Positions 1 through 9,399 of a stretch of 10,020 nucleotides of DNA are shown one piece after another (within the stretch, counting starts at the first letter, position 1; every line of letters starts with the position of its first letter). Made by a program: the position numbers and the translations under genes. Source of the DNA: an uncultured Chloroflexota bacterium (lineage in GTDB: Bacteria > Chloroflexota > Dehalococcoidia > UBA3495); the NCBI GenBank assembly GCA_913052545.1, contig CAJXEF010000076.1:1-10020 (forward strand), in the 5' to 3' direction. Below the pieces are notes generated by a model. It ran no database searches, had not been told where the DNA came from, and was given only the letters and a program-made list of their open reading frames with translations.

Positions 1-455
1 CCACGATCCTCTTGAGTGTATTCACCAACATGATATGCGTTCAAAGCGCGTTCGGGTCTATCAAAAAGATGGAATACAAACTGGGCCAAGGTCCTTTCCC
101 GTTCGGGCGACTCCCAACGTAGTTTATCCTCAGGGATCTGTCGGGTTGCCTTACAGGCTGCGGTCAGAATGGTTTCAAATTTTGAAATCATTCCGGGCAA
201 ATCTGCTTCGAAACTATCTTCGCTAGCAAGGTCAAAAAGACGTGATAGTTCCTTAGGGTTAAACCCTATAACTACCTCATCACCCCAAATGGTCACTGGC
301 ACTACTTTGAGACCTTTTTCCAGAAGCTCATTCATTGAAGACTGGTCATGTTCGACATCGCCGCTATCAAAATCAACCCCTCGATCCGAAAGAAACTCTT
401 TCGTTCTTCCACAAGTGAATCAACCAGGCCTCCAGTAAACTTTTGGTTTATTCAT
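1..455 (-). CDS. Glutaredoxin-like protein with DinB-like C-terminal region, candidate selenoprotein (partial, runs off left edge)
   Basis: Reading leftward from the ATG at 455-453 gives about 151 codons that stay open to the window edge except for one TGA (422-420, codon 12). The start is supported by AAGGA six bases upstream. The N-terminus has a glutaredoxin/NrdH-like fold signature: a first strand KVYWRPG, then (TGA)-F-T-C followed by GRTKEFL, a cis-proline motif VVPVT (Pro53), and VVIGFNPKELSRLF near residues 61-74, like the VVGF(D/N)P ending of glutaredoxins. In relatives the TGA position is the nucleophilic Cys of CxxC, so the protein would carry Sec12-x-x-Cys15. Residues about 85-151 (FETILTAACKATRQIPEDKL, then RERTLAQFVFHLFDRPERAL) resemble the helical DinB/YfiT-like superfamily, which includes thiol S-transferases. 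Role (inferred): thiol-disulfide exchange or thiol transfer in the cytoplasm. Sequence on both sides of the TGA fits the family with no other lesion, which argues against a pseudogene. The alternative is a point nonsense mutation or a sequencing error. Confidence 0.82.
387..403 (-). promoter_or_regulatory. Candidate bacterial SECIS hairpin
   Basis: On the minus strand CGAAAGA-GTT-TCTTTCG forms seven perfect pairs closing a three-base loop (or six pairs with loop AGTTT). It begins 16 nt after the UGA, and the loop starts after 23 nt. This meets the published bacterial SECIS rules: an apical loop of 3-14 nt, a G in the first two loop positions, and 16-37 nt between UGA and loop. The loop also carries GU, as in the E. 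coli fdhF element. I see no obvious bulged U. The hairpin lies inside the coding sequence (residues 18-23), as bacterial SECIS elements do. Confidence 0.7.
420..422 (-). other. In-frame UGA proposed to encode selenocysteine (Sec12)
   Basis: The codon sits between ...WRPG and FTCGRTKEFL, exactly at the first cysteine of a glutaredoxin CxxC motif. A Cys-to-Sec replacement at a redox nucleophile is the classic selenoprotein signature, and TGA is one base from the Cys codons TGT and TGC. If read as a stop, the product would be an 11-residue peptide, although about 139 conserved-looking codons follow. TGA also ends the amidohydrolase gene at 7837-7839, so reassignment of TGA to Trp throughout the genome looks unlikely. 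selA, selB, selC and selD are not in this window. Confidence 0.78.
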
Positions 456-472
456 TATCTGTCCTTCAGAAT

Positions 473-7886: not shown

Positions 7887-8414
7887 ATGCTTGTAACTTT
7901 ACCGGATTACCTGAGACCAGGCTTGGATATAGTTTTCGTGGGACTGAATCCCTCCACCATTTCGGTAAAGCAAGGCCATTATTTCGCTAATCCCAGAAAT
8001 AGGTTCTGGAAAGCTTTAAATATGTCAGGCTTGATACCAGTGGAATTAAACCCCGAGTTAGATTCTCACATGATCGACTATGGCATAGGTTTAACTGATT
8101 TAATAAAACGACCAACATCTCAAGCTACAGGGTTAAAAGCCTCAGATTATCGTCAATGGACTCCTGTCCTGAAAGACAAGTTGATATTATATCAACCCAA
8201 GGTAGCCTGCTTCCAGGGAATGTTATGTTATAAAGCATTTTTAAAATATGGCGAGAATCTAAACCTTAAACCAGAACTTGGGTTACAAACGAACATGATT
8301 AATCTAACCCATATATTTGTAGCGCCCAACCCCAGTCCAGCCAATGCTAAATATTCTTCGGTAGATATAGCCAACTGGTACAAGCAACTAGGGCAGGAGC
8401 TATTAAAAATTTAA
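7887..8414 (+). CDS. mug: G/U(T) mismatch-specific DNA glycosylase, Mug/TDG family
   Basis: Mug/TDG enzymes flip out uracil, thymine or ethenocytosine mispaired with guanine and cut the base-sugar bond, starting base-excision repair. At 175 residues this matches bacterial Mug (about 168). Motif 1 is VFVGLNPS with the water-positioning Asn21 (E. coli has GINPG). The following stretch, HYFANPRNRFWKAL, is the family's signature. The second motif is NPSPAN at 148-153, in place of the E. coli NPSGLSR wedge, so lesion discrimination may differ. An AGGGG Shine-Dalgarno sits eight bases upstream of the ATG. The next gene is another base-excision glycosylase, 67 bases downstream. The TDG-type reading is preferred over family 4/5 uracil glycosylases because no iron-sulfur cysteines are present. 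Confidence 0.9.
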   Translation: MLVTLPDYLRPGLDIVFVGLNPSTISVKQGHYFANPRNRFWKALNMSGLIPVELNPELDSHMIDYGIGLTDLIKRPTSQATGLKASDYRQWTPVLKDKLILYQPKVACFQGMLCYKAFLKYGENLNLKPELGLQTNMINLTHIFVAPNPSPANAKYSSVDIANWYKQLGQELLKI

Positions 8415-8481
8415 CCTGACCATTATCCGCGCCTACTCAAATTAATCCAAGCACCAAAATACGATTTTTGAAAGATTTGAT

Positions 8482-9399
8482 ATGGATAGCATCATTAGCA
8501 CCATCTTCCCAGAACCTCCTTACGACTTCGATCTTACAGTTGGCTACCACACATACTATAGATCGCGGTACGGCACAGATTGTTATGTCTATGGTGAGTA
8601 CCGGAGATTATTAAATATAGGAAATAAATTGATACTGGCCTCAGTAAGGTCAATAGGAACCGTAGAATACCCAAAATTGGAGATGACTCTTGAAGGAACT
8701 GCCCTGACGTCTACAGACGTCGGCCAGGCTAAATCACAAATTGAATGGATCCTGGGGACATCACAAAACCTGAACCAGTTTTACGAGTCAATTGTTCATG
8801 ACCAACCATTGAACGATTTTGGCAAAATATTCTACGGGTTGCATCTCCCACACACCCAATCTCCTTACGAAGCGCTAATTCTCGCTGTCCTGGGGCAACA
8901 GATATCAACTAACGTGGCACATTTAATTAGAACGTTAATGATCGAAAAATATGGCTCTTCTGCAAGATATCGAGGAATGGATTACTATTCATTTCCACAA
9001 CCAATACACCTTGCCGAAGCGTCATTAGAAGACTTGCGCCTTTTGAAGATGAGCTATAGAAAAGCTGAGTATATTCTTGGTATTTCAAGAATTATCAGCG
9101 AACAATCAAACTTGCTAGAATTTGAATCTCGCACGGATGACCAAAAAATAATTACCGAAATCACGAGATTACGCGGAGTAGGCAGGTGGACTGCTCAATG
9201 GTTACTGATAAGAGGGTTGGGAAGAATGGATGCATTCCCTATCGGCGATCTGGCTTTGAACCAAATGGTATCGAAGATCTATTTTGACGATACTCCCGTA
9301 ACTGATTATGAAATAGCAAAATTTTCCGACCGTTGGAGCCCGTGGAGAACCTATGCAACAATTTATCTATTCGCGGCTAATCGCCGAGGATTAATTTAA
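8482..9399 (+). CDS. alkA: DNA-3-methyladenine glycosylase II (AlkA-like, HhH-GPD)
   Basis: This 305-residue protein removes alkylated purines, such as 3-methyladenine, by hydrolysing the glycosidic bond. Residues about 1-100 form an AlkA-N-like beta-rich region (YHTYYRSRYGTDCYVYGEYR). Next comes the helical HhH-GPD domain: PYEALILAVLGQQIS (about 128-142), then the helix-hairpin-helix LRGVGRWTAQWLLIRG from residue 230, and the catalytic Asp256 in FPIGDLAL, equivalent to AlkA Asp238. The four cysteines of an endonuclease-III-type iron-sulfur cluster are absent. The ATG is preceded by GAAAG. The gene lies directly after the Mug-type glycosylase and ends 12 bases from the convergent ffh stop. 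Substrate range and any induction by alkylation damage cannot be seen in the DNA; there is no Ada-like domain. Confidence 0.9.
   Translation: MDSIISTIFPEPPYDFDLTVGYHTYYRSRYGTDCYVYGEYRRLLNIGNKLILASVRSIGTVEYPKLEMTLEGTALTSTDVGQAKSQIEWILGTSQNLNQFYESIVHDQPLNDFGKIFYGLHLPHTQSPYEALILAVLGQQISTNVAHLIRTLMIEKYGSSARYRGMDYYSFPQPIHLAEASLEDLRLLKMSYRKAEYILGISRIISEQSNLLEFESRTDDQKIITEITRLRGVGRWTAQWLLIRGLGRMDAFPIGDLALNQMVSKIYFDDTPVTDYEIAKFSDRWSPWRTYATIYLFAANRRGLI

What the first reader, a model, noticed from the sequence alone, without database searches (positions are those of the whole stretch)
1..455. Likely selenoprotein: glutaredoxin-like UxxC fused to a DinB-like region
An in-frame TGA lies at the first position of the CxxC motif (WRPG-TGA-FTC), and the protein continues with intact glutaredoxin features (cis-Pro53, the VIGFNP motif) and a second domain. 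Annotation pipelines would truncate the gene, start it late (for example at Met41), or call it a pseudogene. Selenium-dependent glutaredoxin-like proteins have been reported in marine metagenomes. A Sec form fused to a DinB/YfiT-like region is unusual enough to deserve follow-up.
Basis: partly seen in the sequence, partly recalled or inferred. Interest (0 to 1): 0.9.

Follow-up and report, generated by a model that had tools for sequence, protein, structure and literature searches.

The report
Overlooked selenium-containing redox fusion enzyme
The gene's apparent early stop signal is very probably read as selenocysteine, giving a small selenium-based redox protein fused to a metal-binding-type helical domain; the same design is common in one group of uncultured bacteria, and the database copies found here lack the part that carries the selenium.

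Summary
On the minus strand (455..3) the frame reads MNKPKVYWRPG-TGA-FTCGRTKEFLS, with TGA at 420-422 where a redoxin has the first Cys of CxxC. The gene runs off the window; relatives show that it continues into a DinB-type four-helix domain (about 250 aa).

Selenocysteine is strongly supported:
- All 73 Grx-DinB genes read at base level have TGA at this codon.
- The 22 listed database relatives that include the motif have Cys there.
- Purifying selection is equal before and after the TGA.
- Just downstream is a SECIS-like hairpin with compensatory changes, not kept in Cys-type redoxin genes.
- selB is in 55 and tRNA-Sec in 51 of 62 genomes with the gene.

Weak points: the window's own genome is not held, its hairpin alone is only marginal (p 0.06), and Sec genes are equally common in relatives without this gene.

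No tested protein reached an NCBIfam cut-off, and a 2026 inventory has no such fusion. I call it a new selenoprotein family by domain make-up: a new variant of a known kind. Its chemistry (Sec redoxin serving a three-His, thiol-transferase-like site) is inferred.

The parts
3..455 (-). Grx(Sec)-DinB fusion gene, 5' 151 codons; the 3' part lies beyond the window edge
   Evidence: full-length relatives of about 250 aa
420..422 (-). in-frame TGA, codon 12, proposed selenocysteine of the UxxC motif
411..413 (-). Cys15, second residue pair of UxxC (proposed resolving Cys)
   Evidence: invariant in alignment of 20 Sec and Cys forms
386..404 (-). SECIS-like hairpin; 7 pairs in the window (387-403) with loop GUU at 394-396; an eighth pair (386 with 404) forms in many relatives but not in the window
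225..455 (-). redoxin (Grx/NrdH fold) domain, residues 1-77; Pfam match at residues 6-62
297..299 (-). cis-Pro53 of the redoxin fold
   Evidence: invariant
3..212 (-). start of DinB-like domain, residues 82-151 (the rest is outside the window)
72..74 (-). His128, first of the three conserved His of the DinB site (His212 and His216 lie outside the window)
462..466 (-). AAGGA, Shine-Dalgarno-like, a few bases before the ATG at 455-453
   Evidence: sequence; similar sites before several relatives' upstream starts; no statistical test made
3..335 (-). the shorter ORF from Met41 (database protein P0002 starts here); lacks the active site

Best explanation
The gene encodes a selenoprotein. UGA12 is decoded as Sec by SelB and tRNA-Sec with the help of a SECIS-type hairpin lying in the TKEFLS codons just downstream. 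The product (about 250 aa) is an NrdH-like redoxin with a UxxC site joined to a DinB/STL-type domain. Proposed working: the DinB domain binds a divalent metal through His128, His212 and His216 and activates a thiol or holds a thiolated substrate, as bacillithiol and mycothiol S-transferases do; the redoxin then reduces the resulting disulfide or adduct, Sec12 attacking and Cys15 resolving, so that one chain handles and recycles a thiol adduct. Shown here from sequence: conserved TGA, Cys/Sec correspondence, selection on both sides, hairpin with compensatory change in the wider set, Sec genes in relatives, both folds by prediction, conserved UxxC, cis-Pro and His residues. Inferred: Sec insertion in this organism, metal binding, reaction and substrate. 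I put Sec decoding at about 0.95 and the thiol-adduct mechanism at about 0.35; the score below is for the selenoprotein Grx-DinB identity.
For: TGA at codon 12 in 73 of 73 genes and in 60 of 61 near-full places of 250 genomes, the exception being cut by its contig end. Cys at the site in all 22 listed database proteins that include it. pN/pS 0.24 before the TGA, 0.25 for residues 24-40, 0.24 for 41-80; 0.09 across the hairpin codons, where pS falls to 0.35 from 0.55-0.84. Hairpin 90.2% paired over 37 distinct Sec genes with 21 two-sided changes, 0 of 500 shuffles as high, against 45.8% in 15 Cys-type redoxin genes. Silent Ser23 codon tracks codon 18. selA and selD in 4 of 4 nearest genomes; selB in 55 and tRNA-Sec in 51 of 62; anticodon TCA in the two checked. 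Model pLDDT 91.5, pTM 0.89, redoxin and DinB folds. Three-His pattern and metal dependence known for BstA-H (PMC5815605 passages).
Confidence: 0.92

Rival explanations
1. The TGA is a true stop; the working gene is a DinB-like protein starting inside (Met41) and the upstream part is decayed.
For: This is how the database copies read: 106 of 128 listed proteins begin 4 or more residues after the site.
Against: Purifying selection upstream of Met41 equals that downstream; Met41 is Leu in L002 and L004; TGA, never TAA or TAG, in 73 of 73 genes; Cys at the site in full-length relatives.
Confidence: 0.03
2. UGA is read through or reassigned to another residue (for example Trp), not Sec.
For: No direct proof of Sec exists; the window's genome is not held.
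Against: The aligned residue is Cys in relatives; tRNA-Sec and selB are present in most relatives; UGA is used as a terminal stop in the same families (for example L002 ends in TGA).
Confidence: 0.02
3. Sequencing or assembly error at 420-422.
For: Reads are not available.
Against: Same codon in 72 other genes from many genomes.
Confidence: 0.01
4. It is a selenoprotein, but the DinB part is only a scaffold or dimer module; the protein works as an NrdH-type reductant or binds a metal or metalloid through Sec.
For: Closest solved sequences of the first part are Grx 7c10 and NrdH redoxins; a review suggests metal-ligand roles for UXX-star selenoproteins (PMC13188914 passages).
Against: H128 is invariant and H212, H216 and Q219 nearly so among 20 very different members, more than a scaffold should need.
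Confidence: 0.35

Closest known systems
Sec-containing glutaredoxins and Grx-like selenoproteins (PF00462, UxxC; GOS Grx-like; Uxx-star families)
   Same: Redoxin fold, Sec at the first position of the motif, SECIS-type hairpin after the UGA
   Different: Those are listed without a DinB domain (PMC13188914 Table 1; PMC2398784 passages); our redoxin scores 42.8 bits with Uxx_star against a cut-off of 66
HUGP/GUXX-star fusion selenoprotein (NF045501)
   Same: A Uxx-type redoxin joined to another domain in one selenoprotein
   Different: Different partner domain and order (redoxin at the C end of the profile); 32.1 bits against a cut-off of 325
DinB/STL superfamily: bacillithiol transferases BstA-H, mycothiol S-transferase, MDMPI
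   Same: Four-helix fold by prediction and the three-His pattern
   Different: No redoxin domain or Sec is mentioned in the passages seen; activity not tested here
Unnamed Cys-type Grx-DinB proteins (for example P0117, P0069)
   Same: Same two domains, order and length
   Different: Cys in place of Sec; where a source names them it is only as glutaredoxin or hypothetical

Membership tests
Bacterial selenoprotein | in-frame TGA conserved in relatives | tested here: met
   73 of 73 genes
Bacterial selenoprotein | Cys at the site in non-Sec homologues | tested here: met
   22 of 22 listed proteins that include the site; alignment
Bacterial selenoprotein | bSECIS after the UGA: 3-9 nt loop, 4-16 bp stem, G in first two loop positions, 16-37 nt spacing, energy <= -7.5 | tested here: inconclusive
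   Window meets loop, stem, G and spacing (7 bp, GUU, 23 nt) but the hairpin alone has -5.2 kcal/mol; covariation supports it in the wider set
Bacterial selenoprotein | selA, selB, selC, selD in the same genome | tested here: inconclusive
   Not testable for the window. Relatives: selA, selD 4 of 4; selB 55 of 62, tRNA-Sec 51 of 62
Bacterial selenoprotein | Se in the protein | not testable with these tools
   needs mass spectrometry or 75Se labelling
Glutaredoxin (Pfam PF00462) | model match over cut-off | tested here: met
   33.8 bits, cut-off 22.9; 15 of 15 members match at E <= 0.01
Uxx-star families (NF041212, NF041211, NF047338, NF041114) | model match over cut-off | tested here: not met
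   window 42.8/66, 32.4/100, 30.8/97, 27/72 bits/cut-off
DinB/STL superfamily | four-helix DinB fold | tested here: met
DinB/STL superfamily | three conserved His | tested here: met
   H128, H212, H216 in relatives; only H128 is inside the window
DinB/STL thiol transferase | metal-dependent thiol S-transferase activity | not testable with these tools
   needs an assay

The most novel reading that the evidence does not exclude
Grx-DinB is a selenium-first enzyme family: a single-chain, metal-assisted seleno-thiol transferase/reductase that is Sec-only in a large group of uncultured Chloroflexota, with Cys forms elsewhere derived from Sec ancestors (the tree places Cys rows in two spots among Sec rows), serving a low-molecular-weight thiol not yet identified in these bacteria.
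Probability: 0.35. Interest if true: 0.78.

Novelty: new variant of a known kind. Interest (0 to 1): 0.62.

Why it matters
It adds a two-domain family to the prokaryotic selenoproteome that current annotation misses: of 128 proteins listed here none contains Sec and 106 begin after the active site. It ties selenium to the DinB/STL thiol-transferase-like fold, gives a lead to the unknown thiol chemistry of uncultured Chloroflexota, and offers Sec and Cys forms of one fusion for a direct test of what selenium adds.

Tried and rejected
Without result: the window's own genome (none held); viral contigs (none); Rfam on the window (0 hits up to E 1); tRNA scan of the window (none). Thiol partner: BshC 0 of 24 with 3 positive control genomes; MshC matches in 24 of 24 but 0 over cut-off, and the control rings in all 14 genomes, presumably through cysteinyl-tRNA synthetase, so undecided. 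Gene neighbourhood: among ORFs of at least 80 aa in L001-L004 only the Grx-DinB ORF itself matched a window protein (in L002 and L003; in L001 and L004 the script kept an overlapping antisense ORF, and L004 ends shortly after the gene), so no shared context beside mfd was seen. Whole-length matches to GSTs and SspA I read as general resemblance (rmsd mostly 4-6 Angstrom or more).

Rejected: pseudogene or late start, other decoding, sequencing error, membership of Uxx-star (see rivals and membership). The near-full place without TGA (G002:C219) is a contig-end cut, not a counter-example.

Limits: the scan could only find U or C at the site; the 29 places were read with any residue allowed. The 73 genes include the window (cut), L001 (a further TAG) and L025 (frame broken later). 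The tree used 29 Sec and 12 of 22 Cys proteins; I left out close relatives, L001, L025, the window and the genes, and the Sec rows come from Chloroflexota searches only, so the nesting may be a sampling effect. Selection figures use 8 genes. Of NCBIfam, bits against cut-offs were shown for the window, the first member of A2 and two Cys forms; for the other 14 rows only E-values, among them mycothiol transferase NF047843 in 3 of 15 (best 1.2e-5).

Papers: PMC13188914, passages and section 7 parts 1 and 2 of 3, which hold Table 1; PMC2398784, PMC1794560, PMC5815605 and PMC10950700, passages only; all others as search listings. That no paper describes a Sec Grx-DinB rests in an open-access library. 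Recalled, from no call: that cGrx1 (7c10) is from Clostridium/Alkaliphilus oremlandii and has a natural Sec form.

Full report
What is in the window. The minus strand from 455 to 3 is one frame broken only by TGA at 420-422. What lies before and after is a redoxin: VYWRPG-U-FTC, cis-Pro53, VIGFNP; PF00462 at 33.8 bits, cut-off 22.9. The window cuts the gene after 151 codons, so the second domain is only half visible. The neighbours are ordinary by Pfam: mfd-like, proB-like, proA-like, an amidohydrolase, two DNA-glycosylase-superfamily genes and an ffh-like end (gene names are my reading).

Relatives. Four genome loci encode the protein at 66-76% identity over the shared part; record titles say Chloroflexi (3) and Dehalococcoidia (1). 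All four have TGA at codon 12; three give 250 aa, and L001 has a further TAG. Three of the four genomes also hold a second Grx-DinB gene at 31-34% identity with one TGA, and the fourth holds one cut by its contig end. In 393 genomes of the class 206 match at E 0.001; the listed matches other than the top ones mostly cover the redoxin part alone. Of the places spanning at least 230 of 250 positions, 15 by my count, all have one TGA. In 250 genomes of the order there are 61 near-full places, in 52 genomes by my count: 60 have one TGA (one of these also a TAG) and one is cut by its contig end; a further gene (G331) is split by a frame change. In 400 genomes of the phylum, at a stricter E of 1e-15, there are six full places, all with one TGA. 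Read at base level: 44 genes (14 FTC type with the window, 21 FSC type, 9 others) and 29 more with any residue allowed at the site. All 73 have TGA there.

Cys counterparts and annotation. A profile search found 622 relatives, the best 120 listed. Of 128 proteins listed in the two searches, 22 include the redoxin motif, all with Cys at the Sec position; the other 106 begin 4 to 50 residues after it, and none holds U or X. The 51 close relatives start at or after residue 30. Across 20 Sec and Cys forms G11, U/C12, C15, F21, L22, P53, L96 and H128 are invariant and H212, H216 and Q219 nearly so.

Selection. Among eight close genes pN/pS is 0.24 before the TGA, 0.09 across residues 13-23, 0.25 for 24-40 and 0.24 for 41-80; pS is 0.55, 0.35, 0.84 and 0.72. 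So the part before Met41 is coding, and the codons after the TGA carry an extra silent constraint.

The RNA element. After the TGA, ACGAAAGAGTTTCTTTCG folds into a 7-bp stem with loop GUU, 23 nt from the UGA. Loop, stem, G and spacing fit the published bSECIS model (PMC13188914 passages). The energy limit of -7.5 is not met by the hairpin alone (-5.2), only by the 54-nt fold (-13.4, z -0.99 against shuffles). Against synonymous recoding the hairpin is significant (p 0.05 or less) in 11 of 14 FTC genes, 7 of 21 FSC, 5 of 9 others and 14 of 16 single-domain Sec redoxins, against 1 of 15 Cys redoxins; the window has p 0.06. Over 37 distinct Sec genes (all but the FSC type) 90.2% of pair cells are standard and 21 cells changed on both sides, 0 of 500 shuffles as high; sliding the partner gives 40-62%. 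The number of pairs with two-sided change (157 of 500) and of pair types (490 of 500) do not exceed shuffles. Fifteen Cys-type redoxin genes from the same searches pair at 45.8%, like shuffles; these are single-domain or short relatives, since no Cys-type Grx-DinB DNA was at hand. Within the window's own group there is no two-sided change, because the stem hardly varies. The clearest sign: where codon 18 has C in the middle, Ser23 is TCG in 28 of 30 and TCC in 2; where it has T, TCA occurs in 6 of 12, against 0 of 30 (Fisher p 0.0002, not corrected for kinship). The five T cases with TCG are all FSC type, whose stem lies in another register; there one pair alternates GC (10) and UA (7), with 4 not paired.

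Machinery. selA and selD (the latter with its own in-frame TGA) are in 4 of 4 nearest genomes, selB and tRNA-Sec over cut-off in 2 of 4; the anticodon is TCA in both. Over the 62 genomes with a full or near-full match, selB passes in 55 and tRNA-Sec in 51; five have neither. Among 18 genomes of the order without a match it is 16 and 14. So the Sec system is general there and does not single out this gene.

Evolution. In a 41-row tree the 12 Cys rows fall in two places among 29 Sec rows, forced by well-supported branches. This suggests Cys forms derived from Sec forms; sampling is uneven and the root unknown.

Known or new. No NCBIfam cut-off was reached where bits were shown: the window, L002, two Cys forms (two truncated forms had no match at all). 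Table 1 of PMC13188914 (119 families by its text) has no Grx-DinB entry and its main text no 'DinB'. Searches pairing DinB with selenocysteine or selenoprotein gave no relevant paper by title and abstract start. I file it as a new selenoprotein family by domain make-up: a new variant of a known kind.

Noticed in passing
L047, L050, L073, L079 (TGA at about 1519-1528 from the match strand's start): About 160-aa Chloroflexota proteins with a Sec redoxin (TPT-U-PYC or TQT-U-PHC) and a C-terminal part that reads like a PDZ domain (my reading); Cys-type relatives such as L043 and L049 exist.
   Followed up: no
L032, L033, L040, L042, L064, L065, L072, L075: Many single-domain Sec redoxins in the same class or phylum carry the same hairpin, so the selenoproteome of these bacteria looks larger than annotated.
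   Followed up: partly
L001:6033-6035: A TAG stands in the frame where relatives have Leu or Gln-like codons, so this copy may be broken or carry an error. Described only.
   Followed up: no
window 1-30 region (P0002): The collection's copy of the window's own protein continues 26 residues past the window, but after the first few it does not look like the relatives (compare P0002 and P0003); perhaps a contig-end or assembly effect.
   Followed up: no
window 7887-9399: A uracil-DNA-glycosylase-superfamily gene followed by a HhH-GPD glycosylase gene on the same strand, a small base-excision-repair pair.
   Followed up: no
L051-L054: selD of the four nearest genomes has an in-frame TGA, so SelD is probably itself a selenoprotein there.
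   Followed up: no
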